A stretch of 64,000 nt of DNA from Phyllobacterium endophyticum (GTDB taxonomy: Bacteria; Pseudomonadota; Alphaproteobacteria; Rhizobiales; Rhizobiaceae): NCBI RefSeq assembly GCF_003010935.1, contig NZ_PGGN01000001.1, positions 930,001 through 994,000 on the forward strand. Reading direction: 5' to 3'. Below, one piece after another: positions 2,998-51,606 of the stretch (position 1 is its first letter; each line of letters begins with the position of its first letter). The notes beneath the pieces are model-generated. The model searched no databases and was not told the origin of the DNA. It was given only the letters and a program-made list of their open reading frames with translations. The translations under genes and the position numbers were made by a program.

Positions 2998-3007
2998 CGA
3001 GAGATGC

Positions 3008-35235: not shown

Positions 35236-38200
35236 ATGACGAAGCAATATGTGCCCAAGGGCGCGACGTTGTCCCGCAGTCGCAAGCCGCTCCAGCAGTT
35301 TCTTGCCATGCTTCTCAGCGGTCTCCTCGGCCTGCAACCAGCATTGGTTCAGGCCCAGCAAATCACTCCAGATGGCAGTGCACCCGCCAGCAACCAACCG
35401 ACCGTCACAACAGCGCCCAACAATGTGCCTCTGGTTGATATTGTTGCGCCAAATTCGATGGGTCTTTCCCACAACAAGTACAACGCGTTCAACGTTGACC
35501 AGCCAGGCGTCATTCTCAACAACTTCAAAAGCGAGGTTGGCGGTCCTTCGGTACTCGGTGGAACTTTGCCTGGCAATCCGCACTTGCGATCCTCCAGACC
35601 CGCTAGTGTCATTCTCAATGAGGTGACGAGCGGTAGTCGTAGCGCCTTGAACGGCCCCATCGAAATCTTCGGCACAAAAGCCGACCTGATCATCGCCAAT
35701 CCGAACGGTATCACCTGTGATGGCTGCGGCTTTATCAATACACCGCGCATGACACTGACAACGGGCAAGCCTGACATTACCTCCGACGGTAGGTTGGGCG
35801 GCTTTAATGTTGATGGCGGCGATATCACGTTTAGCGGCAGAGACGCCAATTTTGCTACGGGCGATGGCAAGGTCGATCTGTTCGACGTCGTCTCCCGCAC
35901 GGTTCAGGTCAATGGCAAAATCTATGGCAAGGATCTTCGCCTGACGGCTGGCCGCAACAAGTTTAGCTACGCCACACGCGACGCGACGGCGCTGACTGCA
36001 ATTTCGGGTGCACCGGAATTTGCCATCGATGGTTCGGCCCTCGGCGCAATGCAAGCGGATACGATCAAGCTTGTCGTCACCGAAAAAGGCGCTGGTGTGC
36101 GCATGCGCGGCAACATGGCCGCGAGCGCGGGCGAACTGTCGCTTTCGGCCGATGGCAAAATCTCCATCGGCAGTGCTTCGGGAGCAGCGGGCGTCACCAT
36201 GCGCTCGCAAAACAGCGTTGCCGCCAAGAGTATCACGTCGAAAAAGCGTGTCCTGGTTCATGCCGACAAGGGAATTACGCTGGATACTGTCGCTGGCGAT
36301 GAGGAAATGGTGCTCGATGGAGGTCAGGGCCTGTTATCTATCACCGGTGAGGCAACAGTGCTGCACAATATCACGCTATCGGCGGCGGCAGGTGTCTCGG
36401 CTAAAAGACTGGATGCAGGACGTGACCTCGTTGTCGCCAGCACATCCGGGGATGTTGAGGTTGGCACCTTAGCCAAGAGCGGCAACAGCATGACGATCAA
36501 CGCCGCCGGATCGATCAGCGCCGCCTCGCTCATAAGCACGAACAGCATGAACTTGAAAGCGGCGCGCAAGATCGCTGTTGCCGGCGCAGCGCAGGCGACG
36601 AGCAATATCGCCGCGACAGCTGCTTCCATCGCAGCAAACAGCATTGTATCCGATGCGGGAGACGTTTCGCTGACCGCCACTTCAGGCTTGGTCAACGTGC
36701 GAACATTGCTGTCAGCGGCGGGCGATTTAACCCTGACCGCAAGTCGGATTGATGCGCAAGACGTCCGGGGTCAAAAGACCATCACACTAAGCGGCGCGGT
36801 AGCTGTCAGCGGACAAATCCTGGGCGGCGGGAACGTCGCGATAATCGGCAGTGGTATCTCCGCCGGCCTGATCGCATCGGGTGTCGATTTCGCGAAGACC
36901 TTCGACACACACAAGGCCGCGCCATCCATTGTTCTGGCCAAGAGTGGGAATCTGACGCTCAACGCCGCATCGGGCGCTATCGATTTCGCGACACTGCTCT
37001 CGGCAGGCGCACTAAACATTACCGCCGCCAGCTTGACCGGCAATACGATCACAGCCGACGAATCCATTGGCATCAACGGCAATATCAATATCAAAAATGT
37101 ACTGCGCGGCGGCCGCGATATCAGTGTTACCGGCTCGGGCATAAAAGCGGGGTCGATTATCTCCGGCATCGATTTTGCTGCAACGGAACGGTCGGGTTCC
37201 TTGGTGTTGACCAATACCGGTGATCTGACCCTAACCGCTTTGACGGGAAATATCGATGGCGGAGTATTGCTCTCAGCTGGCGCACTGACGGTCACCGCAG
37301 ACAATTTCGTCGCGCAAAGCGTGAAGGCCAAGCACAAGATCACCCTTAGCGCCAACACCAACGTCAGCGAGTATCTTCGTGGCGGGCACGATGTCAGCAT
37401 CACCGGTTCAGGCATCAGGGCCGGGTCAATTGTTTCGGGGGTGGATTTTCTCGCAACGGAAAAATCGGGTAAGGTGGTTCTCGGCACCACCGGCGATCTG
37501 ACGCTTGTTGCGACGGTGAATGATATCGACGCCGGTAGACTACTTTCGGCAGGCAGATCAAGCGCGACTGCGGCGCAGAATATTGCGGCTAATGCTGTCA
37601 GTCAGCAAGCCTTGAGCCTCATTGCTGGCAAGGCCATAAGCCTGACCGGACAATCGGTTTCCGGCTCTGCAACTATCTTGAAAGCGGCTTCGATAACGAT
37701 CGACAAGCTTATTTCCGGATACGATTTTGCTGCCAGCCGGAACGATCTGGTCGTGTCAAACGCGGGCTCCATGACATTGGAGGCGACAGCCGGATCCATC
37801 ACGGCGGACAGTCTCACCAGCGGCGGCGATCTCAACGCCCGGGCTTTGCTCAACCTCACCTATAATTCCATGCAAAGCCATGGCGCTGTCTCACTTGCTG
37901 CTGAACATGGGGCTATCAGCCTCGACAGAACCACGGTTGCACAAGGGGATATTTCGCTAAGAGCGAAGAGCATCGATCTCAGCAACAATCGCAGCAAAGT
38001 TGCCACATCGCAGATGCTTTTCATCAACGCGGCGAATGCAAAGCTTGATCACAGTGCGTTTACCTTCGGGGGATTGACGCTTTCCGGTGTCGATAACCTC
38101 GACTTGTCCGACACGGTGCTCAGTGCGATCACCACGGAAGGTGGCCCCGGCAATATCGATCTGAAAGCCGTAACAATCATCACCACGGCGGCAACAGCGG

Positions 38201-41200
38201 TTCTGGCGCAGAACGATTTGATTGTGACGCTCGCCTCGCTGCAGAACAGGGGACAATTTGCTGCCGGCAACGATCTGACGTTCAACATTGCCGGCAATTT
38301 TACCAACACGTCAGAAGGGCTCGTCTATTCCGGCAGGGACATGAAGCTCTTGGTCCCGGGCGATGTTGTGAATGATCAAGGCGCGATTCTTGCAGGGCGC
38401 GATCTCAAGATTGCCGCTAATGACAATGATGGCAAGAACCGTTCCATAACCAATATTTCCGGCACGATAAAAGCCGAAAACGATGCAAGGATTTTTACCG
38501 AAAAGCTGACGAACAGGCGGTCGGCAGCGCCGACCCGGGAAAGAGTTCTGGTTTCAGATGATGTTGTCACCAAATTCGTGATCAATCCGGAGACTTGGGG
38601 CAAGCCTGTGGGGATATTGTTTGACGATCCCGACTATAAACCGCAGCAGCCCTTTTTCCCCGGAGAGTCTCAACTAAGCTCCGCAGAGTGGGCAAACAGA
38701 CTCTACGGCATCATCACTTTTGCTGACGGTACTTCATTCCGTACCCGAGGAAACACGGCTCCGGACCGCGAGATGCCGTGGAATTGGACAAAGAGCTTTC
38801 ATGGCGATGGCGAAATGTTGGCTTGGCTACGCGCCGAGCTGCCGAAAGATCAAGATGGCAATCTTGTTGTTGATGCGAATCGACCAACCAAGATCTTACT
38901 GCGTCATAACAAGGCGAAACAATTCGCCTGGTCTTTCCGGTGGGACGACAATACGCAGCTTCGCCAGACGGTTCATGAAGACCGCCTGACGGGCGATGGC
39001 GGCCCACAGGCGCTTATCCAGACAGGTCGCAATCTGACTGTCGATGCGACAGAGTTGAACAATGAATATAGCTCGATCGAAGCCGGCGGCAATGCCACCT
39101 TCGCAGGCACGACACTTAATAATCTCGGTGTTGCCCTCCATCGTACCACTTTGACACAGTGTGAGGCAAAGGGCGGGTGCGAAGTCTACGATGCGGCAGG
39201 AAATCGCAATGTTTTGAACGATCTCGGCGAGGGCGTCTCGAAACTGACCCGGGATGAGATGATCAATGCCGTGCCAGGCACTATCAAGGCGGCAGGGGAG
39301 CTCAAGACAACATTCAATATCGTCAACAACGCCATACCCGAAAATTTGGCGAGCGGTACCAAGCTTTCCGAAAGGGTCGATCCCAGGCAGCCGATCTCTT
39401 CGCTGAGGGACCTGACCGCCGGGGCGGCTTTGTTCACGCCCAATCCGGCGCTGGCAAGTCTCGACGCGGGTGCTAATCCTTCGGCACCCCTTTCCCCCGC
39501 AGCCGTTGCAGCCTTCATGGAAAAGCTTTCCGCCATTTCGCCCAAACCGCAATCGGGCGGCTTTGGCGGGACGATACCGGGCCAGGTTTTTCTCTACGAA
39601 ACCCGCGCGGCCTTCCTCGACGTCGGCAAATTCTATGGCTCGAGCTATTTCATGAAGCGCATCGGCTATAAGCCCGAGCGCAGTGTTCCCTTTCTGGGCG
39701 ATGCTTATTTCGAGAACCAGCTGATCGACCAGCAAATGCGCCGGCTTGTCGGGCAGGGTCTTGGCAAGGGATCTTTCATCCCCGGCAGTGACGCAATCGA
39801 GCAGATGAAGACCTTGCTCGACAATGGCCTTGCCTATGCCCAAGCGCACAATCTCAAAATTGGCGAGCAGCTTTCGCCCGACCAGGTGGCGGCCCTGACG
39901 CAATCGGTCGTGCTTTATGTCAAGCAGACCGTAAAAGGCGTCCAGGTACTTGCGCCGGTCGTTTATCTTGCCAACACCGACAAAGCCAATTTGACCGTTG
40001 CCGGGGCACTCATCTCCGGTGGCTCGGTCGATATGAACGTCGGCAATGTCAATAATTCCGGTGTCATTGCCGCCAAGGCCAACCTCAAACTCGCCGCCAC
40101 CAATATCAAGGCGGATGGGGGCAGTTTCATCGCGGGCGGCAATGCCGATCTTTCCGCATCCGGATCGATGACATTAAAGGCCCGCACGCTGAATGTCGCC
40201 GGAACCAATGTGGTCATTCCTGATGGCGGTGTTCAGGCGGGCCGCAATGTGACACTGCACGCTAATGATAATCTCACCGTCCAGGGCGCGACGGTCGCGG
40301 CGGGCGGCAATGCGGCGCTGACAGGCAAAGGCATCACGCTTGATGTCGTGAAGGTTGACAACAAAGGCTCGCAATATGCGACCGGGGCAAAGGTCGAAAC
40401 TGGCGGCAGCCTGTCGATTGCGGCAAATGACAATGTCAATGTCATCGGCAGTTCCGTCAAGGCCGGAACATCGCTGGATGTAGCGGCCACCAACGGCTCG
40501 GCCAATGTCGTTACCGCCGATGTCACGCACAGAATAGGCAACAGAAATTCCACATGGCAGCAACAGTCGGAACTTCTCTCGGGCGCGGGTACGAAGATCA
40601 CGGCGGGCGACGATATTCTCCTGTCGGGCACCAAGCTCAGGGCTGGCGGCGATGTGGCGCTGAAAGCCGGTGACGACATCAATATCACCGCCGCGCAAAA
40701 TCAAAGCGCGACGAAGGCGGGCGGAAACTCTTCCTCTTCCATCAACCATACGGGCTCGGAAATCATTGCTGGCGGCAGCATCACTGCAAATGCCGGTAAT
40801 GATGCCAAGGACGGCGACCATGATCTTAGCATAATCGGCTCGAAGCTTCAGGCCGCCGGCAAGGTTGATCTTAAAGCTTCCGACGATGTTACAATTGCCG
40901 AAGCCACGGACAGCTCTGTCGTTGATACGGAAACCCGCAAGAAGCGCGTTTTTTCCTCCAGCAAGTCCTCCACCCACACCGAAACATCAACAGCTGTCGG
41001 TTCGTCCATCGCCGGCGGGCAGGGTATCGATGTCACCTCGGGCGGCGACACGACAATATCGGCATCGAAGCTGAGAGTGGGCAATGACAACGGAAAGGCG
41101 GACCTGAACATCACCACTGGTGGTGATCTCGTCGTCGCTTCGGGCAAGGACACGCGTGAACGCCATGACAAATCCAGCGGCAAGGGCTTCCTGACCAAGA

Positions 41201-44200
41201 AGTCCGCATCGCTCGACAGCTACGATGAACGCACTGTCGGATCTGACCTTGATGCCACGGGCAATGTCACCCTGAACGCAGGCAAAAACGCCGTCATCTC
41301 CGGCTCGAAGGTCACAGCGGGGGAAACAATCCATGTTGAAGGCGACAGCGTGTCGATCATCGGCGCGGAAGAAGACCATGCACTGCAAACGCAGCAGAAG
41401 AAATCCGGCCTGTTTGCCGGCTCCGGCGATGGCTTTTATTCGATCTGGGGCAAGTCGCAAAAAGACAATGCGAGTAGCTCGACACTGAATGCCGGGTCGC
41501 AGCTTTCTGCCGGTAAGGATGTGACGCTGAACGCGCGCTGGAGCGACATAAACATCATCGGTTCCAATGTCGATGCGAAGAACGACATCGTGCTCGATGC
41601 AACGCGCGATGTGAACATTCTCCCCGGCGCGGAAAGCATGTCGCAATCGGAGCAGCAGAAGCGCTCCGGCTTTGGCGTGCAAGTCAACTCCGGCGATGGC
41701 TCGGTCTCGATCGGCATAGGCTACGGCTCGGCGACCGACAGCACGCGGCAGGGATCGAACACCAATGCGGTGTCGTCGCTCTCCGCCGGACATGATCTGA
41801 AGATCACCGCTGGTAGGGATCTGAACAGCCAGGGCGGACAGCTTTCGGCGGAGCACGATCTTGCCCCGCGTGCCGGGCGCGATATGAACTTCTTGTCCGT
41901 TCAGGACAAGACCAATTACGAGGCGATGCATGAGAAGCTCTTCGCCGGGGTTTCGCTGTCAGTTTCATCAAGTGTTGCCTCCACCGCGCAGAGCGTCACC
42001 GATGCGGCGAAGAAAGTCAGCAAGGTCTCCGACGGCTATAGTGCTGCCAATGCCGCCTTTGCTTCCCTCAAGGCCTATGACGCGCTGGATAATATCGCCA
42101 AGGGCGGCAATCTTGCCTCGGTGTCGCTGACAGCAGGGTTTACCTATGAGAAGCAAAAAAGCCAGGGCGAGACCTCCATACCGATCCCGACCACGCTTCG
42201 CGCCGGACATATGATCGATTTCGATGCAGGGCGTGATCTCATCGGCAAGGGCGTGCAGATGACTGCCGGGGTCAATGCTGCAGGCAACGATATTTCCGAT
42301 CCCGCAGATGAGAACTCCGGCAAGATCAAGTTCAAGGTCGGGCGCGATCTTGTCCTCGAAAGCGCGCAGGCAACCAATTCAGCCTCATCCAGCAATAAAA
42401 GTGCGGGTGCCAATCTCGGCGTCTCGGCTGGTCTTGGTATCACGGACCCGAATATCGGCCTCACCGGCGGCTTCAACTTTGGCTCGGGCAGTTCCAATTC
42501 CAACGGCACCACGCAGCTTAACGCCCATGTCAACGCCAAACATATTGAGCTTGATGTCGGCAATGACGCGATTTTGCGGGGCGCGGTGGTTTCCGCCGAT
42601 GATGTCAAGGCGAGGATCGGCGGGGACCTGACGATCATCTCCGTGCCCGATACGGGCACCAGCAAAGACAAATCCGCCGGTTTCGGCATGCAATTTTCAA
42701 GCTCGCTCGATCTCGGCTCGTCTCTGTCGGGTGGCATGCCGGACCTTGGCGATCAGCTTTCCAATCTCTCTCCCTCCTCGCTCAACCCATCCGGTGGGCG
42801 CGGTTCGGGCACCACCAGCTGGATCACCGAGCAGTCAGGCCTCGTATCGAAACACAGGATGGATGTGGAGGTCGAAGGCGACACGCTGATCGACGCCGGC
42901 AAGATCGTCTCGGACGATGGCGATCTCAAGCTCAAGACCGCAACGCTGACCCACAAGGATTTTGACGGCGAGAAGCGGTTCGAGGGCGGCAGCCTCGATC
43001 TTTCCATTGATGTGACCGGCAAATCGCACAAGCCGGACCCGGACAATCCCGCGCGCAACGATACACTTGAGGGCAGCTTTAAGCTCGACGACACGCGCCA
43101 GAAAGTGCGCGCGACGGTGGGGCCGGGCGTGATCGAAATCACCGATCCGCAAAAACAGGCAAAGCTTGAGGAAGCGGGCACAACCCCTCCGCTGTCCGAA
43201 CTCAACCGCGACCCCGATGCGGCGATGGAGATCACCAGGGACAAGCATGTCGATCTCGAGGTGTATCTGTCGAGCGAGAGCGTGAAGGCGGCAGCAGATG
43301 CGCTCGATGTGATCGGCAAATCGCTTAGTCACATCATTACTGAAATGACCGGCAGCCTCAAAGACAGCGGCAACCTGTCAGCAGAAGCTGCCAAGAAGCT
43401 GACGAATATTTTTGAGGGGATTGAAAGCAAGAACCTTGATCTTGCACAGGTGCTGGGCTGTGCAGGCGGGAAACAGGGATTCAATCTGCTCGATCTCATT
43501 GTATCGAGTGCGCACGCCCAGACTGCAGGATGCGCTTACACCGGCGTCGACGGACGCGGCTACACGCTCTCCGATGACGAGTACGAGAAATGCCTGCAAA
43601 TCCTCGCCAATGGCGTTCGTCTGCGCGTGCAAGGCGGCGGTACCGAAGACTCCTGGTTGCCGAGAATAGCCGACATTGCCAATGCAATCCGCAAACTCGA
43701 CGGCACGATCGGTATCGGCGATCACAGCGGCAGCGAAACAGCTCTGGCGTGGAGCGGACTAACGCATCAATTGACGCGCGGTGCTATCTTAAAGGCGCTC
43801 GGCAATGACGGACTTGCTGCTTACGACAAATATACGGCGGACGTCGCATCCGGTCTTGGCACGGTCAAGGACGAGCTTAGTCAATATCTGACGAAGCTTG
43901 GCGAGCGGAACGGCTTCAGCGCTACTGAAATCGCGGACATGAAATATATCGCTGGCGCGGGTATCACTGCGGTCTCGGTGATCGTGCGTGCCAAGGGAGA
44001 ACATGAGCATCATATCTGCACCAACAAGAATTGCATTTCAACCGCGGCTGGGGGACCATGGACACCGCTCTTCAAACAGATATTCAAAGATGCGGATATG
44101 AATTTGGAGGATGCCGTCAATAAAGTGCATGTGCCCGGGCATAAAGGACCACATCCGCGGGAATACCATGAATATGTGTTTGATAAGCTTAAAGATGCCT

Positions 44201-44328
44201 TATCCGGCATAAAGCCTCACACTCCAGAATACCGAACCGCGTTAGAAAACACATTGAACAAAATTCGGCAAGAAGCAGTTACCCCGGGGACGCAGGTCAA
44301 TAACTGGCTGACAAAAGGGCGTGGATGA
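35236..44328 (+). CDS. cdiA: CdiA-like filamentous exoprotein (TpsA) with AHH-nuclease-like toxin tail
   Basis: A 3030-residue contact-inhibition effector. After a long signal region (MLLSGLLGLQPALVQAQQ) comes the TPS secretion domain with ADLIIANPNGITCDGCGF (NPNG plus the CDGC pair). Residues about 300-1070 are beta-helical repeats, 1100-1330 a non-repeat segment (RVLVSDDVV...) that may be the receptor-binding part, and 1590-2510 hemagglutinin-type repeats. The constant part ends at VDLEVYLSSESVKAA, about residue 2686; beyond it the sequence is unique to this copy. The last ~110 residues (EHHICTNKN at 2924, then VHVPGHKGPHPREYHEYVFDKLKDAL) resemble AHH-type HNH nucleases, with Glu for the first Ala. 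The immunity gene starts 2 bases downstream. The tail is richer in A+T than the body. Confidence 0.9.
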   Translation: MTKQYVPKGATLSRSRKPLQQFLAMLLSGLLGLQPALVQAQQITPDGSAPASNQPTVTTAPNNVPLVDIVAPNSMGLSHNKYNAFNVDQPGVILNNFKSEVGGPSVLGGTLPGNPHLRSSRPASVILNEVTSGSRSALNGPIEIFGTKADLIIANPNGITCDGCGFINTPRMTLTTGKPDITSDGRLGGFNVDGGDITFSGRDANFATGDGKVDLFDVVSRTVQVNGKIYGKDLRLTAGRNKFSYATRDATALTAISGAPEFAIDGSALGAMQADTIKLVVTEKGAGVRMRGNMAASAGELSLSADGKISIGSASGAAGVTMRSQNSVAAKSITSKKRVLVHADKGITLDTVAGDEEMVLDGGQGLLSITGEATVLHNITLSAAAGVSAKRLDAGRDLVVASTSGDVEVGTLAKSGNSMTINAAGSISAASLISTNSMNLKAARKIAVAGAAQATSNIAATAASIAANSIVSDAGDVSLTATSGLVNVRTLLSAAGDLTLTASRIDAQDVRGQKTITLSGAVAVSGQILGGGNVAIIGSGISAGLIASGVDFAKTFDTHKAAPSIVLAKSGNLTLNAASGAIDFATLLSAGALNITAASLTGNTITADESIGINGNINIKNVLRGGRDISVTGSGIKAGSIISGIDFAATERSGSLVLTNTGDLTLTALTGNIDGGVLLSAGALTVTADNFVAQSVKAKHKITLSANTNVSEYLRGGHDVSITGSGIRAGSIVSGVDFLATEKSGKVVLGTTGDLTLVATVNDIDAGRLLSAGRSSATAAQNIAANAVSQQALSLIAGKAISLTGQSVSGSATILKAASITIDKLISGYDFAASRNDLVVSNAGSMTLEATAGSITADSLTSGGDLNARALLNLTYNSMQSHGAVSLAAEHGAISLDRTTVAQGDISLRAKSIDLSNNRSKVATSQMLFINAANAKLDHSAFTFGGLTLSGVDNLDLSDTVLSAITTEGGPGNIDLKAVTIITTAATAVLAQNDLIVTLASLQNRGQFAAGNDLTFNIAGNFTNTSEGLVYSGRDMKLLVPGDVVNDQGAILAGRDLKIAANDNDGKNRSITNISGTIKAENDARIFTEKLTNRRSAAPTRERVLVSDDVVTKFVINPETWGKPVGILFDDPDYKPQQPFFPGESQLSSAEWANRLYGIITFADGTSFRTRGNTAPDREMPWNWTKSFHGDGEMLAWLRAELPKDQDGNLVVDANRPTKILLRHNKAKQFAWSFRWDDNTQLRQTVHEDRLTGDGGPQALIQTGRNLTVDATELNNEYSSIEAGGNATFAGTTLNNLGVALHRTTLTQCEAKGGCEVYDAAGNRNVLNDLGEGVSKLTRDEMINAVPGTIKAAGELKTTFNIVNNAIPENLASGTKLSERVDPRQPISSLRDLTAGAALFTPNPALASLDAGANPSAPLSPAAVAAFMEKLSAISPKPQSGGFGGTIPGQVFLYETRAAFLDVGKFYGSSYFMKRIGYKPERSVPFLGDAYFENQLIDQQMRRLVGQGLGKGSFIPGSDAIEQMKTLLDNGLAYAQAHNLKIGEQLSPDQVAALTQSVVLYVKQTVKGVQVLAPVVYLANTDKANLTVAGALISGGSVDMNVGNVNNSGVIAAKANLKLAATNIKADGGSFIAGGNADLSASGSMTLKARTLNVAGTNVVIPDGGVQAGRNVTLHANDNLTVQGATVAAGGNAALTGKGITLDVVKVDNKGSQYATGAKVETGGSLSIAANDNVNVIGSSVKAGTSLDVAATNGSANVVTADVTHRIGNRNSTWQQQSELLSGAGTKITAGDDILLSGTKLRAGGDVALKAGDDINITAAQNQSATKAGGNSSSSINHTGSEIIAGGSITANAGNDAKDGDHDLSIIGSKLQAAGKVDLKASDDVTIAEATDSSVVDTETRKKRVFSSSKSSTHTETSTAVGSSIAGGQGIDVTSGGDTTISASKLRVGNDNGKADLNITTGGDLVVASGKDTRERHDKSSGKGFLTKKSASLDSYDERTVGSDLDATGNVTLNAGKNAVISGSKVTAGETIHVEGDSVSIIGAEEDHALQTQQKKSGLFAGSGDGFYSIWGKSQKDNASSSTLNAGSQLSAGKDVTLNARWSDINIIGSNVDAKNDIVLDATRDVNILPGAESMSQSEQQKRSGFGVQVNSGDGSVSIGIGYGSATDSTRQGSNTNAVSSLSAGHDLKITAGRDLNSQGGQLSAEHDLAPRAGRDMNFLSVQDKTNYEAMHEKLFAGVSLSVSSSVASTAQSVTDAAKKVSKVSDGYSAANAAFASLKAYDALDNIAKGGNLASVSLTAGFTYEKQKSQGETSIPIPTTLRAGHMIDFDAGRDLIGKGVQMTAGVNAAGNDISDPADENSGKIKFKVGRDLVLESAQATNSASSSNKSAGANLGVSAGLGITDPNIGLTGGFNFGSGSSNSNGTTQLNAHVNAKHIELDVGNDAILRGAVVSADDVKARIGGDLTIISVPDTGTSKDKSAGFGMQFSSSLDLGSSLSGGMPDLGDQLSNLSPSSLNPSGGRGSGTTSWITEQSGLVSKHRMDVEVEGDTLIDAGKIVSDDGDLKLKTATLTHKDFDGEKRFEGGSLDLSIDVTGKSHKPDPDNPARNDTLEGSFKLDDTRQKVRATVGPGVIEITDPQKQAKLEEAGTTPPLSELNRDPDAAMEITRDKHVDLEVYLSSESVKAAADALDVIGKSLSHIITEMTGSLKDSGNLSAEAAKKLTNIFEGIESKNLDLAQVLGCAGGKQGFNLLDLIVSSAHAQTAGCAYTGVDGRGYTLSDDEYEKCLQILANGVRLRVQGGGTEDSWLPRIADIANAIRKLDGTIGIGDHSGSETALAWSGLTHQLTRGAILKALGNDGLAAYDKYTADVASGLGTVKDELSQYLTKLGERNGFSATEIADMKYIAGAGITAVSVIVRAKGEHEHHICTNKNCISTAAGGPWTPLFKQIFKDADMNLEDAVNKVHVPGHKGPHPREYHEYVFDKLKDALSGIKPHTPEYRTALENTLNKIRQEAVTPGTQVNNWLTKGRG
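36823..37563 (+). repeat. Three tandem ~91-95-residue repeats inside CdiA
   Basis: Units begin at 36823, 37108 and 37381 with GG-x-x-x-x-x-x-GSGI-x-AG-x-I-x-SG-x-DF, continue with a hydrophobic L-T-L stretch (GDLTLTA) and LLSAGAL, and are 285, 273 and about 180+ bases long. A weaker fourth unit (TIDKLISGYDFAASRNDLVVSNAGSMTLEA) follows. They presumably stack as turns of the beta-helical filament. Confidence 0.75.
42469..43293 (+). repeat. Homology arm in resident cdiA (copy 1)
   Basis: This 825-bp block, from GGCTTCAACTTTGGCTCGGG to AAGGCGGCA, recurs at 49034-49858 with the same spacing throughout (offset 6565, no indels) and only scattered substitutions, and its last 498 bp recur at 46809-47306. 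The right edge coincides with the end of the CdiA constant region. It is the tract through which the toxin tail could be swapped. Confidence 0.9.
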
Positions 44329-44329
44329 T

Positions 44330-44929
44330 ATGGCAAGATTTTATCGTTTACGCGATGACATTGATTTTCCATGCCGCTGGTATCTGGGGCATGTCAGAGG
44401 AATGAAACTTAAATCAGGCGATGACTGGAAGTTTACAACAGCAGATGGAGTGGCGCATTTGTCGGCTTTAGGAGAGGATAAATTCATCCTCGACATGAAC
44501 GAATTTGGTCCGGCCGACGGTAGTGCGATGGACTTTACCATAGCGGCACACGATGTACCCATCGTGAGCGCCACGTTGAAGGACGCTTTGTTCTTTGTCG
44601 ATGGGTTGTATTATTATGCAGTCGCTATTCCTGAAAAGCCATCAGCAAGTCCACACTACTATGCGATGGCAACTGATAACTTTATCGATTGTTTTGATGA
44701 GAGAAAATCCGTTTTTAGTATCTTTACTCCCGACGACCCGGTCCGCCCGGATAGAGCGGGCGATTATCATTCGGTCATCAAGCTGATCATAGATCCAGCG
44801 AAAGCTGTTGGGCACGACATTTTCCGTATCAAACGATATCCAACAGCCCTCATCGTCAGCGAACGCGTCAAAATAACACTTGAACGGGGTGGCTTCACCG
44901 GACTGGACTTTCGGCTTTGCACAGAATGA
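44330..44929 (+). CDS. cdiI: Putative CdiI immunity protein for the resident CdiA toxin
   Basis: 199 residues from the ATG at 44330, two bases after the cdiA stop, with AAGGGCGTGG upstream. The C-terminal HDIFRIKRYPTALIVSERVKITLERGGFTGLDFRLC resembles the DUF1629/Imm11-Imm43 type of immunity proteins, where a short strand-helix unit ending in TGL-x-F is typical. It is soluble, with no signal peptide, as expected for protection in the cytoplasm. Base composition is lower in GC than the cdiA body. The position and size make immunity the likely role; the specific family is tentative. Confidence 0.75.
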   Translation: MARFYRLRDDIDFPCRWYLGHVRGMKLKSGDDWKFTTADGVAHLSALGEDKFILDMNEFGPADGSAMDFTIAAHDVPIVSATLKDALFFVDGLYYYAVAIPEKPSASPHYYAMATDNFIDCFDERKSVFSIFTPDDPVRPDRAGDYHSVIKLIIDPAKAVGHDIFRIKRYPTALIVSERVKITLERGGFTGLDFRLCTE

Positions 44930-45022
44930 TTGAGCTTTGATGCGTCAGCGGTCTACGTGCTTAGGGCTCTCATGTGCCAACGACAATCGTCCGCTTCGGT
45001 TGATCATCGGGCCCTGGTACCA

Positions 45023-45263
45023 TCACCCTGAACGCGGGCAAAAACGCCGTCATCTCCGGCTTGAAGGTCACAGCCGGCGAAACGATCCATGTCGAAGGCG
45101 ACAGCGTTTCGGTGATCGGCGCGGAAGAAGGCCATGCGCTTCAGACGCAGCAGAAGAAATCCGGCCTGTTTGCCGGCTCCGGCGATGGCTTTTATTCGAT
45201 CTGGATATAGAACAGCGCTTCAACAATCAGATTATCAAATGGGCTAAGGAGCGGGGGGGATGA
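45023..45263 (+). pseudogene. cdiA fragment fused to the last codons of a lost toxin
   Basis: 45023-45204 (182 bp) repeats cdiA 41267-41448 without indels (TLNAGKNAVISGLKVTAGETIHVEGDSVSVIG..., ending FYSIW). At 45205 the match stops and the cdiA frame hits TAG. In another frame the remaining bases read IEQRFNNQIIKWAKERGG and stop at 45263, overlapping the next ATG in ATGA. So almost an entire toxin has been deleted, leaving about 18 C-terminal codons. The 44930-45022 spacer before it contains GCCAACGACAATC. Confidence 0.8.
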
Positions 45264-46180
45264 CTTATGCTCAAATCTCCCAAGCGGATTTTTTGAAAGG
45301 TGGTCTCTACACGGAGGTTCTCGGTTGCTGGACGCACATCTCTGATTTTTCCGGCGATGTGAAGGATGCAATTTTTGGACGGTCCGACGATGTAGCACCC
45401 GATTACTATACGCCGATCGCAAAAGGCAAGGAGTGGCTGTTCGAACTGACCTGCAAGCACCAGCCGCGCACCGGCGCGCTTTTGATGGCGGGCGGGCCGC
45501 TGTTTGTGCGCGTTAAACGACGCAGTGACGGCGGCTTGCCAGCATTGCATATGGGTCTTGAGGTGCGCGACAAGGTGGTGCTTATCAGCCGCGATTTCTG
45601 GGGCGATAATCCCTCCGATCCCGACTATCAGGCGAATATTGACCGAATAACGGCGTTTCTCACCAAGCGCGACGGCAAACCCAATCACGCTGAACAGCGT
45701 CAACTCAGCCTGCCGCTGCCGATCCGCGAGGCCTATTATACCCGCTTCGATGGCATGGATATTCCGGACGATGAGGTCGTTGGCATATATTCGCGCTTTC
45801 TGCCATATCCCGTCGGCAGGCCATGGCAATCTTGGGATGGTTATCTCAAGAATTTCCGCGGCTACAAGAAGCGCTATATCCCCTGGCTGGAGGATCGGCT
45901 TGGCATTGTGCCGACGCCGTTCGACCGCAAATACGCCTATATCAGCTTCATGATGTTCATGGCGGCGGGCCCCAACCCCGCCGGGCGCGAGGGCGATGTG
46001 TTCTTCGTGAAAAACGCGGATGGCATGCAAGACGGCGTAATCTATCACATCAAGGATGCACATATCGAGAACATGCGCATTCTTTCCGAGCCGGCCGAAG
46101 CCATCGATCGTTATTGCGAACATGTACTGCTGGAGCGCGAGGGAAGATTCGATTTCCTGCCCTATACCAGCGAGATGTAA
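45260..46180 (+). CDS. Putative immunity protein of a deleted toxin (306 residues, family not recognised)
   Basis: An intact open frame beginning at an ATG that overlaps the toxin-remnant stop, with GGAGCGGGGGG upstream. The sequence is soluble and rich in aromatic and charged residues (GLYTEVLGCWTHISDFSGDVKDAIF, PIREAYYTRFDGMDIPDDEVVGIYSRFLPYPVGRPWQSWDGYLKNF, DRKYAYISFMMFMAAGPNPAGREGDVFFVKNADG). I do not recognise a family. The position right after a CdiA tail is that of an immunity gene, but it is longer than most. If so it is an orphan immunity, protecting against a toxin this strain no longer encodes. Confidence 0.65.
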   Translation: MTYAQISQADFLKGGLYTEVLGCWTHISDFSGDVKDAIFGRSDDVAPDYYTPIAKGKEWLFELTCKHQPRTGALLMAGGPLFVRVKRRSDGGLPALHMGLEVRDKVVLISRDFWGDNPSDPDYQANIDRITAFLTKRDGKPNHAEQRQLSLPLPIREAYYTRFDGMDIPDDEVVGIYSRFLPYPVGRPWQSWDGYLKNFRGYKKRYIPWLEDRLGIVPTPFDRKYAYISFMMFMAAGPNPAGREGDVFFVKNADGMQDGVIYHIKDAHIENMRILSEPAEAIDRYCEHVLLEREGRFDFLPYTSEM

Positions 46181-46231
46181 GGTCTGAACACTCCGTCCGT
46201 AGCAGCCGAATAGCTAGCGCACGTCCGCCCG

Positions 46232-46808
46232 CATGCGAGCCACCGATGGCTTTGATATCAATGTGGCGGGCAAGACCAAGCTTACCGGCGGCCTGATTAC
46301 TTCGAAGGCACCGAAAGAGGCGAACCTGCTTCAAACTGGCACGCTGGAAACCGCAGATATCGACACTCATTTCCACATGGAACGCCGATAGCTGGGGCGG
46401 GGGGATAAACGGGACGGCTCTCATTGTCTCGCCACATCTGCATCAGGGAGAAAATGAAACCGGCAAAGCGCTTTCGGCGATTTCTCCGGGCGAAATCATC
46501 ATCACGAATCCTGACCATCAGACGCAGGATATCGCCTCTCTCAACCGCGATACCAGCGATACCAACACCTCACTGCCGGATGTTCCCGAGCTAAAATCCA
46601 TCCTTGCCGAGCAATACAAGACGCAAAAGCTCTATGACGACGCTGCCGCTAAGGCCGCCAGGGTTACCGGCGATTGGGCGAGCCAGCTCGAACATGGTGC
46701 CACCAGCGATGCGGACAAGGCATTCTGGGCCGAAGGCGGGCCTGGCCGGGTGGCGCTGCATGCGCTGGCTGGCGGGCTTTTAGGCGGTGTGAACGATCTT
46801 TCCGGTGT
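46232..46808 (+). pseudogene. Fragment of a second, canonical TpsA/CdiA pretoxin region
   Basis: Frame one (46232-46391) reads GFDINVAGKTKLTGGLITSKAPKEANLLQTGTLETADIDTH, a hemagglutinin repeat; an extra T in CATTTCC shifts the frame, after which TWNADSWGGGINGT... continues with DHQTQDIASLNRDTSDTNTSLPDVPELKSILAEQYKTQ and DKAFWAEGGPGRVALHALAGGLLGGV, the standard segment before the toxin in many CdiA/FHA proteins. The resident cdiA has no counterpart. It ends within GTGGGCGCGGTTCGGGC, where it is joined out of frame to the next cassette. Confidence 0.75.
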
Positions 46809-47306
46809 GGGCGCGGTTCGGGCACCACCAGCTGGATCACCGAGCAGTCAGGCCTCGTGTCGAAACACAGGATGGATGTGGAGGTCAAAGGCGACACGCT
46901 GATCGACGCCGGCAAGATCGTCTCGGACGATGGTGACCTAAAGCTCAAGACCGCAACGCTGACCCACAAGGGCTTCGAGGGCGAGAAGCGGTTCGAGGGC
47001 GGCAGCGTCGATCTTTCCATCGATGTGACCGGCAAATCCGACAAGCGGGACCCGGACAATCCAACGCGCAATGATATGCTGGAGGGCAGCTACAAGCTCG
47101 ACGACACGCGCCAGAAAGTGCGCGCGACGGTGGGGCCGGGCGTGATCGAGATCACCGATCCCACGAAACAGGCAAAGCTTGAGGAAGCGGGCACAACCCC
47201 ACCGCTGTCCGAACTCAACCGCGACCCCGATGCGGCGATGGAGATCACCAGGGACAAGCATGTCGATCTCGAGGTGTATCTGTCGGGGGAGAGTGTGAAG
47301 GCGGCA
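46809..47306 (+). repeat. Homology arm, partial copy 2 (cassette A)
   Basis: Matches cdiA 42796-43293 and cassette B 49361-49858 (offset 2552 to B), with a few substitutions. The left edge is the joint with the pretoxin pseudogene. Confidence 0.88.
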
Positions 47307-48389
47307 TTGAAGGCCGGGGCTGCCGTCACGGAAATCATCGGCGGCGTGCTCGAACATGTACGCGAACCGGCGCTGGCAAAGGCGATCCGCAGTAAGGATA
47401 TCGACCCGGCCGATGCTTTGCGGCAATTGCAGTCGGGTGCATGCGGCGAGCAACGCGGCGATACATTCTTTCTGTGGGAATGGATTGTGCCGTCCGCTCA
47501 TGCCGCTGATTGCATCATCAAGACAATCAAGGGCGATGCGATTGTCATCCATGACCGCCTTGGCTGCATCGAAGCGCTGGGACTGACGCTTTACAATCAG
47601 GTCGCTGGCGTTCCGCTGAATGGCGACAAGTTTGCCAAGGGGTTAATCAAGGGCGCGGGCGAGCAGGGCGAGGAATTCATCGCTCTGGTATCGAACCCAT
47701 CCGGGTTGATGAAGACCACGTCCGGCGTCGCGTTCGAGTTCTACCAGGACCCGAAGGCGGCGGCGCTGAAATATGGCGTGGAAACGGCCGCTGGCTTGCA
47801 GGAAAAATCCCTGCTTTATGTCAAATCGCTGGCCAATGGTGATTATGAAGCGGCCGGCAAGGCGCTTTCCGGGCTAGCCATTGACCTTGCCGTCAAGGTC
47901 GCCGCACCGGCGGCAGGCGCTGGCCTTGCAACGCTGAAAATTGCCGATAAAATCACGGCGCTGAAGAAGATCGAGGCGGTCGAGAAGGCGGCTGTGCTTG
48001 AAAGGGCGGCGCGGCCAAAGCTGACGATCAAGGACCATAAGGTCGATCATCAGGCATTTGTGAATGATCTGGTCAAGCAATTAAAGGATCTAGGTTATCA
48101 AGTTGGAGCGAACCCATATTTCAAAGTTGCCTGTGGAACAAGCCACTGCAAACCGGACATCATCTACAGAACACCAAGCGGCAAGGTTAGCATTGTCGAA
48201 GTGAAGACAGGAGATGCCAGCCTTTCAATCAGGCAAAGTGAAATCTTCCCGCAAATTAGGGATGGGAATTCTGTTCCGACAGGAAAAACAGCCGCTGATC
48301 TCGGTTTAATTCCGGGAGTTCCTCTAAAAGATCAAGGTTATCCTAACGGTATTCCAATCTATGAGCAACGTTTCCCAGGACCACATTGA
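46809..48389 (+). CDS. Orphan cdiA 3' cassette A: constant linker plus PD-(D/E)XK-like toxin
   Basis: The open frame reads GRGSGTTSWITEQSGLVSKHRMDVEV... like the resident cdiA up to VDLEVYLSGESVKAA (47306), then a cassette-specific linker with LWEWIVPSAHAADC, a hydrophobic helix-rich pretoxin (GLTLYNQVAG..., LIKGAGEQGEEFIALVSNPSG) and a toxin core. The core has PD at 48153-48158 and E-V-K at 48198-48206 (CKPDIIYRTPSGKVSIVEVKTG), the PD-(D/E)XK nuclease pattern, then RQSEIFPQI. There is no authentic start, signal or secretion domain; a TTG at 46674 opens the frame only by passing through the pretoxin pseudogene out of frame. It is therefore probably silent until recombined into cdiA. Confidence 0.75.
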   Translation, partial: GRGSGTTSWITEQSGLVSKHRMDVEVKGDTLIDAGKIVSDDGDLKLKTATLTHKGFEGEKRFEGGSVDLSIDVTGKSDKRDPDNPTRNDMLEGSYKLDDTRQKVRATVGPGVIEITDPTKQAKLEEAGTTPPLSELNRDPDAAMEITRDKHVDLEVYLSGESVKAALKAGAAVTEIIGGVLEHVREPALAKAIRSKDIDPADALRQLQSGACGEQRGDTFFLWEWIVPSAHAADCIIKTIKGDAIVIHDRLGCIEALGLTLYNQVAGVPLNGDKFAKGLIKGAGEQGEEFIALVSNPSGLMKTTSGVAFEFYQDPKAAALKYGVETAAGLQEKSLLYVKSLANGDYEAAGKALSGLAIDLAVKVAAPAAGAGLATLKIADKITALKKIEAVEKAAVLERAARPKLTIKDHKVDHQAFVNDLVKQLKDLGYQVGANPYFKVACGTSHCKPDIIYRTPSGKVSIVEVKTGDASLSIRQSEIFPQIRDGNSVPTGKTAADLGLIPGVPLKDQGYPNGIPIYEQRFPGPH

Positions 48390-48964
48390 TGCTGCAGAAT
48401 GATATTGTTTTGGCCTTTAAAAAGCTGGGTTGGCAAACCGGCAAAGACGATGCTGGTGATAATTATGCCATTTTTGATATTGGGAATATTCAACTGCAAA
48501 TAATTCCACGATTACGTCCCATATGGGGAGGCAAGAGGCTTGCATGCGTCAGATCAGTCACAACAAAAAAATTTACGAGTGCTTGCACAAAAATATTTCA
48601 TAGAAATACTGAGAAGCACCCGCATAATCCGTTGGTACGTGGTGACGAAGATTTAATCCAGCAAGATTACACGTTCAAAGATATCAGGGCATTGTCAGAA
48701 CGTCTGATCGAATGGGCAAAAATCCAGGACGTTGATCCGGCGCTGAAACGCCTGCGTGAGTTGCCGACTGATTCAAAAGGCACGGAACCGTTGTATCACC
48801 TCGCCGCGCTTGCCCTCGCTGGCGATGTGGACAAACTTGAATATTACCAGCGTAGCTTCGAGGCGGGCGACCGACTGGGCTTTGTGCCGTATATCTCGAA
48901 GGAAATGATCGACCGCGCTGTGGAGATCGCAAAAGATACCTCTTCACGCATATCTACGGAGTAG
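48389..48964 (+). CDS. Putative immunity protein for cassette A
   Basis: 191 residues. The ATG at 48389 shares one base with the toxin stop (TGATG). The N-terminal ~110 residues (MLQNDIVLAFKKLGWQTGKDDAGDNYAIFDIGNIQLQIIPRL...) are AT-rich and differ from cassette B, while the C-terminal ~75 residues from KRLRELP to SSRISTE are nearly identical. No known family. The variable half is presumably the part that recognises the toxin. Confidence 0.72.
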   Translation: MLQNDIVLAFKKLGWQTGKDDAGDNYAIFDIGNIQLQIIPRLRPIWGGKRLACVRSVTTKKFTSACTKIFHRNTEKHPHNPLVRGDEDLIQQDYTFKDIRALSERLIEWAKIQDVDPALKRLRELPTDSKGTEPLYHLAALALAGDVDKLEYYQRSFEAGDRLGFVPYISKEMIDRAVEIAKDTSSRISTE

Positions 48965-49033
48965 CGTTGGCGTGTCAACGGTTGTCAATGGCTTCCCGCC
49001 AACGACAATCTAGTTGCGCCTAGCGTTGCGCTT
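48965..49033 (+). repeat. Inter-cassette spacer with inverted repeat (copy 1)
   Basis: CGTTGGCG (48965-48972) and CGCCAACG (48997-49004) can pair. GCCAACGACAATC at 48998-49010 recurs at 44976-44988 and 51544-51556. The spacer has no stop in the frame of the preceding immunity gene, so that frame runs on into cassette B. Confidence 0.65.
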
Positions 49034-49858
49034 GGCTTCAACTTTGGCTCGGGCAGTTCCAATTCCAACGGCACCACGCAGCTTAACGCCCATGTCAACG
49101 CCAAACATATTGAGCTTGATGTCGGCAATGACGCGATTTTGCGGGGCGCGGTGGTTTCCGCCGATGATGTCAAGGCGAGGATCGGCGGGGACCTGACGAT
49201 CATCTCCGTGCCCGATACGGGCACCAGCAAAGACAAATCCGCCGGTTTCGGCATGCAATTTTCAAGCTCGCTCGATCTCGGCTCGTCTCTGTCGGGTGGC
49301 ATGCCGGACCTTGGCGATCAGCTTTCCAATCTCTCTCCCTCCTCGCTCAACCCATCCGGTGGGCGCGGTTCGGGCACCACCAGCTGGATCACCGAGCAGT
49401 CAGGCCTCGTGTCGAAACACAGGATGGATGTGGAGGTCAAAGGCGACACGCTGATCGACGCCGGCCAGATCGTCTCGGACGATGGTGACCTAAAGCTCAA
49501 GACCGCAACGCTGACCCACAAGGGTTTTGACGGCGAGAAGCGGTTCGAGGGCGGCAGCGTCGATCTTTCCATCGATGTGACCGGCAAATCGCACAAGCCG
49601 GACCCGGACAATCCAACGCGCAATGATGTGCTGGAGGGCAGCTACAAGCTCGACGACACGCGCCAGAAGGTGCGCGCGACGGTGGGGCCGGGAACGATCG
49701 AAATCACCGATCTGCAAAAACAGGCAAAGCTTGAGGAAGCGGGCACAACCCCACCGCTGTCCGAACTCAACCGCGACCCCGACGCGGCGATGGAGATCAC
49801 CAGGGACAAGCACGTCGATCTCGAAGTGTATCTGTCGGGGGAGAGTGTGAAGGCGGCA
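49034..49858 (+). repeat. Homology arm, copy 3 (cassette B)
   Basis: Full-length 825-bp copy of cdiA 42469-43293. Left of 49034 the match stops at once (spacer sequence), and right of 49858 cdiA and the cassette diverge completely. Confidence 0.9.
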
Positions 49859-50941
49859 TTGAAGGCCGGGGCTGCCGTCACGGAAATCATCGGCGGCGTG
49901 CTCGAACATGTACGCGAACCGGCGCTGGCAAAGGCGATCCGCAGTAAGGATATCGACCCGGCCGATGCTTTGCGGCAATTGCAGTCGGGTGCATGCGGCG
50001 AGCAACGCGGCGATACATTCTTTCTGTGGGAATGGATTGTGCCGTCCGCTCATGCCGCTGATTGCATCATCAAGACAATCAAGGGCGATGCGATTGTCAT
50101 CCATGACCGCCTTGGCTGCATCGAAGCGCTGGGACTGACGCTTTACAATCAGGTCGCTGGCGTTCCGCTGAATGGCGACAAGTTTGCCAAGGGGTTAATC
50201 AAGGGCGCGGGCGAGCAGGGCGAGGAATTCATCGCTCTGGTATCGAACCCATCCGGGTTGATGAAGACCACGTCCGGCGTCGCGTTCGAGTTCTACCAGG
50301 ACCCGAAGGCGGCGGCGCTGAAATATGGCGTGGAAACGGCCGCTGGCTTGCAGGAAAAATCCCTGCTTTATGTCAAGGCGCTGGCCAATAGCGATTATGA
50401 AGCGGCCGGCAAGGCGCTTTCCGGCCTTGTCGTTGACCTTGCCGTCAAGGTCGCCGCACCGGCGGCAGGCGCTGGCCTTGCAACGCTGAAAATTGCCGAT
50501 AAGATCAAAGCACTGAAGAAGATCGAGGCGGTCGAGAAGGCGGCGCAGCTTGAAAGGGCGGCGCGGCCAAAGCTGACGATCAAGGACCATTACGAACATC
50601 ACAAAGCTTTTGTCGATGATTTGGTCAAGCAACTGAAAAATGCGGGATATACTATTGGAGAGAACCCGATTTTCAAAAGTGCCTGCGGGGTAGGCTACTG
50701 CAAACCGGATATCATCTTCAGAACGCCAAGTGGCAAGGTGAGTATTATCGAGGTCAAGACCGGTGATGCCGGTCTTTCAATCCGACAAAGCGATATCTTC
50801 CCGCAGATACGGGACGGGAATTCGATCCCGACTGGACATGTCGCATTTCAGCTTAAGTTGACGCCCGGCGTAGCCTTAAAAGACCAAGGTTACCCAAATG
50901 GCATCTCAATATTCGAACAACGTTTTCCGGGGGCGCTGTGA
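49034..50941 (+). CDS. Orphan cdiA 3' cassette B: constant linker plus PD-(D/E)XK-like toxin
   Basis: Starts abruptly in the cdiA-like sequence GFNFGSGSSNSNGTTQLNAHVNAK and follows cdiA to 49858, then the same linker and pretoxin as cassette A with very few changes. From about 50580 it diverges (EHHKAFVDDLVKQLKNAGYTIGENPIFKSACGVGY), yet keeps the active-site pattern PD (50705-50710) and E-V-K (50750-50758), CKPDIIFRTPSGKVSIIEVKTG. The frame is open from the upstream immunity stop at 48962, but the first usable initiator is a TTG at 49139; no signal or TPS domain. It is best read as a silent toxin cassette. Confidence 0.75.
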   Translation, partial: GFNFGSGSSNSNGTTQLNAHVNAKHIELDVGNDAILRGAVVSADDVKARIGGDLTIISVPDTGTSKDKSAGFGMQFSSSLDLGSSLSGGMPDLGDQLSNLSPSSLNPSGGRGSGTTSWITEQSGLVSKHRMDVEVKGDTLIDAGQIVSDDGDLKLKTATLTHKGFDGEKRFEGGSVDLSIDVTGKSHKPDPDNPTRNDVLEGSYKLDDTRQKVRATVGPGTIEITDLQKQAKLEEAGTTPPLSELNRDPDAAMEITRDKHVDLEVYLSGESVKAALKAGAAVTEIIGGVLEHVREPALAKAIRSKDIDPADALRQLQSGACGEQRGDTFFLWEWIVPSAHAADCIIKTIKGDAIVIHDRLGCIEALGLTLYNQVAGVPLNGDKFAKGLIKGAGEQGEEFIALVSNPSGLMKTTSGVAFEFYQDPKAAALKYGVETAAGLQEKSLLYVKALANSDYEAAGKALSGLVVDLAVKVAAPAAGAGLATLKIADKIKALKKIEAVEKAAQLERAARPKLTIKDHYEHHKAFVDDLVKQLKNAGYTIGENPIFKSACGVGYCKPDIIFRTPSGKVSIIEVKTGDAGLSIRQSDIFPQIRDGNSIPTGHVAFQLKLTPGVALKDQGYPNGISIFEQRFPGAL

Positions 50942-51507
50942 TGCTTAAAAATGATGTTCACCTTGCCTTTAAAGAACTCGGTTGGCGTATAGGAAAAGAC
51001 GAGGGCAGAGATCATTATGCCATTTATGGTCTTGGCAAAACTCTCGTTCAAGTCATTTTGCGATTGGAGCCAAGAAGAGAGGGAAAGAGACTTTTATGTT
51101 ATTTCTCTATGTCACCATCGGATTTCATTAGTGCTGTTGCAGAGATATCCTCCAGAAAATGGGAGCATGTGCCATTCATCACAGGACAGGAAGACCTTCG
51201 CCAGACCGACTTTACATTTGAAGACATTCGCGTTTTATCTAATCGTTTGATCGAATGGTCGAGACAACAAGACATTGAATCCTCCATGAAACGGCTGCGT
51301 GAGTTGCCGGCTGATTCAAAAGGCACGGAACCTTTGTATCACCTCGCCGCGCTTGCCCTCGCTGGCGATGTGGACAAACTTGATTATTACCAGCGTAGCT
51401 TCGAGGCGGGCGACAGACTGGGCTTTGTGCCGTATATCTCGAAGGAAATGATCGACCGCGCTGTGGAGATCGCAAAAGATACCTCTTCACGCATATCTAC
51501 GGAGTAG
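50941..51507 (+). CDS. Putative immunity protein for cassette B
   Basis: 188 residues, ATG at 50941 sharing one base with the toxin stop. The N-terminal half (MLKNDVHLAFKELGWRIGKDEGRDHYAIYGLGKTLVQVILRL...) is alignable to but clearly divergent from cassette A; from MKRLRELPADSKG on the two are almost identical. Soluble, no known family. Confidence 0.72.
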   Translation: MLKNDVHLAFKELGWRIGKDEGRDHYAIYGLGKTLVQVILRLEPRREGKRLLCYFSMSPSDFISAVAEISSRKWEHVPFITGQEDLRQTDFTFEDIRVLSNRLIEWSRQQDIESSMKRLRELPADSKGTEPLYHLAALALAGDVDKLDYYQRSFEAGDRLGFVPYISKEMIDRAVEIAKDTSSRISTE

Positions 51508-51606
51508 CGTTGGCGGGTCAACGGTTGTCAAGGGGGCTTTCCCGCCAACGACAATCTAGTTGCGCCTAGTCGTTGCGTTTGGCTTCAACGTTGGCTCGGG
51601 CAGTTC
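51508..51606 (+). repeat. Inter-cassette spacer copy 2 and stump of another cdiA arm
   Basis: CGTTGGCGGG (51508-51517) and CCCGCCAACG (51541-51550) are a perfect 10-bp inverted repeat with a 23-base loop; the 13-mer GCCAACGACAATC is at 51544-51556. About 25 bases of the arm follow (TTGGCTTCAACgTTGGCTCGGGCAG), degenerate, marking the end of the array. The rest of the 230-base gap to emrB holds no gene I can support. Confidence 0.65.

What the first reader, a model, noticed from the sequence alone, without database searches (positions are those of the whole stretch)
42469..51606. CDI locus with a four-module reservoir of toxin/immunity tails
The resident cdiA plus its immunity gene is followed by three displaced modules: a deleted toxin with intact putative immunity, and two full orphan toxin/immunity cassettes, separated by cdiA debris. 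All modules are in the same orientation, and none has a start, signal peptide or secretion domain. This matches the known idea of orphan cdiA-CT/cdiI modules (described in enterobacteria), but the stacked layout with arms, spacer repeats and scars of earlier exchanges preserves a readable history in an alphaproteobacterium.
Basis: partly seen in the sequence, partly recalled or inferred. Interest (0 to 1): 0.85.

Follow-up and report, generated by a model that had tools for sequence, protein, structure and literature searches.

The report
CDI locus trailing stored toxin tails
Behind a predicted contact-killing toxin gene in a bacterium that is likely a Phyllobacterium lie three detached toxin/immunity tail modules facing the same way, one with its toxin mostly deleted, which likely serve as stored immunity and a silent toxin reserve; such arrays are known from other bacteria, so this is mainly a new case of a known arrangement.

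Summary
The window carries ialB-cdiB-cdiA-cdiI (AHH nuclease tail, Imm11 immunity), then three modules in the same orientation: a deleted toxin with an intact putative immunity gene (45260-46180) and two orphan tail/immunity pairs (46807-48964; 49034-51507), joined by cdiA debris. The orphans share 500 and 825 bp arms with the resident cdiA, in the same reading phase, up to 43293. A full-length CdiA elsewhere (P0001) ends in the orphan tail type, so tails do differ across this border between genomes. Displaced CDI tail arrays are well documented (Poole 2011, Ruhe 2016) and usual in this family: 6 of 11 named related loci hold two or more arm copies. New detail: the two orphans have 36 mismatches in 1200 nt left of the toxin core and a near-identical immunity 3' end, but dS is 1.3-2.1 in the toxin core and first 118 codons of the immunity gene. 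Duplication alone cannot give that; it points to a second, nested exchange whose right edge lies inside the immunity gene. VENN is absent; an A[HY]A motif 62-72 residues past the arm may take its place. Toxicity, immunity and switching are untested.

The parts
32833..33441 (+). ialB-like gene upstream of cdiB
   Evidence: IalB PF06776 E 2.9e-23; homologues upstream of cdiB in L016 and L017
33457..35178 (+). cdiB, outer-membrane two-partner transporter
   Evidence: ShlB and two POTRA families
35236..44328 (+). resident cdiA, 3030 aa
   Evidence: TPS domain, haemagglutinin repeats, AHH nuclease at 2914-3013
42469..43293 (+). arm in resident cdiA, shared with modules 3 and 4; right border = tail junction
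44330..44929 (+). resident immunity gene, Imm11 type
   Evidence: PF07791 E 3.7e-11; start read
44976..44988 (+). 13-nt end signature shared with the 3' flanks of modules 3 and 4
45023..45204 (+). cdiA fragment (copy of 41267-41448) heading module 2
45207..45263 (+). remnant of the deleted module 2 toxin
   Evidence: translation and ATGA overlap; similar end in L066
45260..46180 (+). module 2 putative immunity gene, 306 aa, no Pfam family
   Evidence: model pLDDT 91.6
46251..46806 (+). debris of arm and pretoxin from another CdiA lineage
46807..48389 (+). module 3 orphan tail: arm 46807-47306, pretoxin to 47996, toxin core 47997-48386
48389..48964 (+). module 3 immunity gene, DUF6990
   Evidence: PF22499 E 3.2e-78
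48965..49033 (+). module 3 3' flank with predicted hairpin, fused to the cdiA arm of module 4
49034..50941 (+). module 4 orphan tail: arm 49034-49858, pretoxin to 50548, toxin core 50549-50938
50941..51507 (+). module 4 immunity gene, DUF6990
   Evidence: PF22499 E 1.1e-76
51508..51606 (+). module 4 3' flank ending in a 26-nt piece of the arm start (51581-51606): scar of a further unit

Best explanation
This is a cdiB-cdiA-cdiI locus, predicted to mediate contact-dependent growth inhibition, followed by three detached tail modules in the same orientation, which likely store immunity and a silent reserve of toxin tails that homologous recombination through the shared arms would place on the resident cdiA. 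Shown by sequence: the arms and their phase, the missing secretion part, the AHH/Imm11 and DUF6990 modules, a relative whose full-length CdiA ends in the orphan tail type, and long identical runs between copies (377 and 551 nt) that point to recent exchange or copying. Inferred: each new tail entered at the cdiA arm and pushed the older one downstream; the orphan immunity genes still protect against kin that keep the old tail; the orphan toxins could return by crossing-over; and within modules 3 and 4 the toxin core plus the first two thirds of the immunity gene was exchanged separately between shared flanks.
For: Arms and single orientation; in-phase arms (arithmetic); one long frame plus short start-less frames here and in 5 of the 6 named loci with two or more arms (the sixth, L028, shows no long frame in the stretch held). 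P0001 matches module 3 over 3-526 of 527 (83.6%) and module 4 over 1-633 of 634 (82.6%) but the resident query over only 1-389 of 619 (64.3%). Other tails on related arms: PF13930 endonuclease (P0065, P0068), LHH (P0064). Module 3/4 dS 0 over 154 pretoxin codons, 1.29 in the toxin core, 2.07 in immunity N, 0.075 in immunity C; dN/dS about 0.13 and 0.19 in the two diverged parts, i.e. the proteins diverged under constraint. Identical runs of 551 and 377 nt, 0 of 20000 shuffles reach either. GC3 falls at the core and rises again inside the immunity gene. Immunity-type genes outlive cdiBA in G013.
Against: No strain with a switched tail was seen at DNA level; no expression data; the promoter scan does not exceed its shuffles clearly (8 sites against mean 5.3, sd 2.2). 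Module 2 has lost its toxin and module 3 its left arm part. In the core dS is near saturation, and flank homogenisation around an old core would look alike. VENN, the usual tail border, is absent. Fold support for the orphan toxin as a nuclease is weak.
Confidence: 0.7

Rival explanations
1. The stack is only an immunity memory: displaced modules are kept for their immunity genes and the orphan toxins are passengers that are not redeployed.
For: Module 2 keeps the immunity gene and lost the toxin. In G013 no cdiB or cdiA match remains in 17.5 kb while a SUKH_5 gene and the module 2 gene stay open. PMC4927057 (passages) and PMC5361080 (passages) describe retention for immunity.
Against: Both DUF6990 modules keep an open toxin frame, low dN/dS in the core and in-phase arms with long identical runs; a relative carries this tail type on a complete CdiA.
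Confidence: 0.2
2. Modules are mobile circles: the unit between the two copies of the 3'-flank/arm junction excises and re-enters at the arm.
For: Module 4 is flanked by two near-identical junctions (3' flank fused to cdiA position 42469), so a circle would carry one module.
Against: No Pfam family, hence no integrase or transposase, in the 6 spacer ORFs scanned; the arm copies start at different cdiA positions here and in relatives. A tandem duplication explains the junction more simply.
Confidence: 0.06
3. Simple decay of several complete cdiA genes.
For: P0001 shows this tail type on a complete cdiA elsewhere; debris of another CdiA lineage lies at 46251-46806.
Against: One cdiB in the genome; two of the junctions start at the same cdiA base, 42469; the arms stay in phase.
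Confidence: 0.03
4. Assembly artefact.
For: Long near-identical repeats are hard for short reads.
Against: The copies differ from each other. The window's contig is 1,685,424 bases, while the entries for the window's own proteins P0066 and P0093 list a longest contig of 2,119,450, which suggests a second assembly with the same proteins.
Confidence: 0.01

Closest known systems
Orphan cdiA-CT/cdiI arrays of CDI loci (PMC3150448, passages; PMC4927057, passages)
   Same: Start-less cdiA tail fragments plus immunity genes behind cdiBAI, same orientation, varying lengths of cdiA homology, tail differences between strains.
   Different: No VENN; no Pfam family, so no transposase or integrase, in the 6 spacer ORFs scanned; a diverged core between near-identical flanks whose right edge lies inside the immunity gene.
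Rhs orphan modules (Koskiniemi 2014, not read; as summarised in the PMC4927057 passage)
   Same: An orphan tail can recombine onto the upstream gene.
   Different: Rhs protein instead of two-partner secretion CdiA; switching was shown there, only inferred here.
Type VI effector/immunity arrays of Vibrio cholerae (PMC5361080, passages)
   Same: Sequential displacement that retains old immunity genes; recombination without specific integration sites.
   Different: Other secretion system; there mostly orphan immunity genes, here two toxin frames remain too.
Polymorphic toxin cassettes (PMC3482391, passages)
   Same: A 3' cassette brings toxin and immunity gene together.
   Different: Here the exchanged core ends within the immunity gene.

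Membership tests
CDI system (cdiBAI) | CdiB transporter next to CdiA with TPS domain and haemagglutinin repeats | tested here: met
CDI system (cdiBAI) | toxin domain at the C-terminus with an immunity gene directly behind | tested here: met
   AHH and Imm11, gap of 1 nt between stop and ATG
CDI system (cdiBAI) | polymorphic tail on a conserved body | tested here: met
CDI system (cdiBAI) | VENN motif at the tail border | tested here: not met
   no VENN in resident CdiA. The family test therefore gives a VENN-less variant; cdiBAI layout and domains are met
CDI system (cdiBAI) | contact-dependent killing and specific immunity | not testable with these tools
   needs the bench
orphan cdiA-CT/cdiI array | cdiA tail fragments without secretion part, each with an immunity gene, downstream of cdiI | tested here: met
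   module 2 keeps only the immunity gene
orphan cdiA-CT/cdiI array | fragments encode VENN | tested here: not met
   pretoxin of modules 3 and 4 read; they carry SAHA at 47493-47504 and 50045-50056 instead
orphan cdiA-CT/cdiI array | orphan tail found on a complete cdiA in a relative | tested here: met
   P0001, another genome, not a sister strain
PD-(D/E)XK nuclease (orphan toxin core) | core fold with D...ExK motif | tested here: inconclusive
SUKH / SMI1-KNR4 immunity superfamily (module 2 gene) | SUKH fold | tested here: inconclusive

The most novel reading that the evidence does not exclude
A two-tier cassette system: an outer unit (arm, tail, immunity gene) is stored and redeployed through the cdiA arm, and inside it an inner core (toxin catalytic domain plus the specificity part of the immunity gene) is swapped separately, with the last third of the immunity gene and its 3' flank as right-hand recombination arm, so that new toxin/immunity specificities are assembled in the silent store before use.
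Probability: 0.3. Interest if true: 0.65.

Novelty: new variant of a known kind. Interest (0 to 1): 0.45.

Why it matters
It extends CDI tail arrays to VENN-less systems of rhizobia and their relatives, gives a locus whose arms are long enough to test switching directly with long reads, and offers a footprint (diverged core between near-identical flanks, edge inside the immunity gene) for asking how new toxin/immunity pairs arise without losing their match.

Full report
Observation. The window holds a complete CDI-type cluster: ialB (32833-33441), cdiB (33457-35178), cdiA (35236-44328) and an Imm11-type immunity gene (44330-44929). All are direct. In the whole genome the arm occurs only in this locus. 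The orphan arms are in the same reading phase as the resident (arithmetic); their frames are open from an upstream stop and show no TPS domain.

Module 2. ORF 45260-46180 begins with an ATGA overlap to the stop of a toxin remnant. In relative G013 (L066) the homologous gene (78%) follows a longer remnant with a similar end. Its 72 database rows, the first being the window's own protein, include entries whose longest contig has the same length as that of other cdi proteins: P0108 with P0001 (783,483), P0096 with P0064 and P0069 (81,923), P0098 with P0063 (431,604, locus tags two apart in Phyllobacterium sp. 1468). That equal lengths mean the same contig is inferred. G013 shows no cdiB or cdiA match in 17.5 kb but an LHH-like toxin end (read by eye), a SUKH_5 immunity gene and this gene. 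In G010 the gene is followed by a DUF6990 C-terminal remnant. In the genus, 3 of 20 genomes, own included, have the gene. This fits an immunity gene; it has no Pfam family at E up to 10.

Modules 3 and 4. Both end in DUF6990 genes, each ATG lying on the toxin stop (TGATG). DUF6990 is rare in the family: 2 of 394 genomes, one the window's own, the other only the G010 remnant. P0001, a 2933-aa CdiA with TPS domain, matches the resident tail query over 1-389 of 619 (64.3%) but module 3 over 3-526 of 527 (83.6%) and module 4 over 1-633 of 634 (82.6%). So this tail type ends a full-length CdiA in another genome. Related arms also carry a PF13930 endonuclease (P0065, P0068; P0068 is named Phyllobacterium endophyticum) and an LHH nuclease (P0064).

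Nested exchange. Left of the core (46807-48006) modules 3 and 4 differ at 36 of 1200 positions, with one identical run of 551 nt (0 of 20000 shuffles reach it). Then identity is 43-83% in 60-nt steps over about 780 nt (toxin core and immunity N part) and returns to 97-100% in the last third of the immunity gene. dS: arm 0.097, first 154 pretoxin codons 0, rest of pretoxin 0.142, toxin core 1.29, immunity N (118 columns) 2.07, immunity C (74) 0.075 (the high values are near saturation). One duplication with selection cannot give this; either the core was replaced or the flanks were homogenised around it. Base composition leans towards replacement: GC3 is 39% and 38% in immunity N against 62% and 61% in immunity C (Fisher p 0.003 each, not independent because the C parts are near copies), and 70% in the pretoxin; the cores have 42% and 55%. 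The P0001 core is likewise its most diverged part (68-69%, against 92% in pretoxin and 84% in arm). Resident and module 4 share a 377-nt identical run at the left of the arm (0 of 20000 shuffles), so exchange between expressed and stored copies, or copying of one from the other, is recent.

Junction. Modules 3 and 4 end in the same 3' flank (a hairpin is predicted) fused to cdiA position 42469; the second copy is cut 26 nt later. I read this as the scar of a tandem duplication of the module unit. GCCAACGACAATC, the right side of that hairpin, also follows the resident immunity gene, which suggests that the AHH tail replaced a tail with the same 3' flank.

Debris. 46251-46551 contains short matches to arms of other CdiA proteins (12 of the fetched proteins at E 1e-4 or better) and 46591-46848 matches a reading frame behind the degenerate cdiA of G017 (48%, E 6e-22). 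The stack thus holds remains of another CdiA lineage.

Relatives. An alignment of arms found 11 named loci; 6 of 11 have two or more arm copies at E 1e-3 (L018, L020, L021, L026, L027, L028; some copies partial). In 5 of these 6 there is one long frame and one or more short ones; L028 shows only short ones. In the family, 14 of 394 genomes have the arm, and 8 of those 14, own included, have two or more matches, not always on one contig. Stacking is therefore usual in this CdiA family. The genus is inferred to be Phyllobacterium: G013, same genus, has a contig of 3,873,773 bases, the length listed for P0094 of Phyllobacterium zundukense.

Known or new. Poole 2011 (PMC3150448; passages) describes start-less orphan modules with VENN, working orphan toxins, expressed orphan immunity and an orphan fused to cdiA by a deletion; Ruhe 2016 (PMC4927057; passages) states the fossil and the silent-repository models; Zhang 2012 (PMC3482391; passages) describes toxin/immunity cassettes displacing tails. 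The layout is a known kind. Different here: VENN is absent, the 6 spacer ORFs scanned have no Pfam family, and there is a nested core. In place of VENN, 74 of 82 arm-bearing proteins with at least 150 residues behind the arm have [STP][AP][HY]A within those 150, against 16 of 290 control windows from the longer of these proteins; among 19 dissimilar tails 15 have it, at residue 62-72. The proteins are related, so these are not independent cases.

Noticed in passing
window 43507-43518, 47493-47504, 50045-50056; proteins: All three tails carry SAHA 63-72 residues behind the arm; 74 of 82 arm-bearing proteins have [STP][AP][HY]A there against 16 of 290 control windows. Usually a short hydrophobic stretch precedes it and a Cys follows: a candidate border or processing motif in place of VENN.
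   Followed up: partly
window 32833-33441; L016 524-1126; L017 18463-19206; L066 8675-9367: An IalB-like gene lies just upstream of cdiB in the window and two other genomes of the genus, and remains in G013 where cdiBA is gone.
   Followed up: partly
L066 8675-11691: Relic locus: ialB runs into an LHH-like toxin end, then a SUKH_5 immunity gene, toxin remnants and the module 2 gene homologue, with no cdiB or cdiA match in the stretch.
   Followed up: partly
L065 9036-9179 (- strand): A DUF6990 C-terminal piece (about 48 residues, 69% identical) stands alone just behind a module 2 gene homologue, as if the end of the immunity gene were a left-over recombination arm.
   Followed up: partly
window 46251-46806: Debris of an arm and pretoxin from other CdiA lineages between modules 2 and 3.
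   Followed up: partly
L016, L017: Two genomes of the genus have ialB-cdiB and a shortened cdiA frame (1664 and 1684 aa) with no match to the resident tail query.
   Followed up: no
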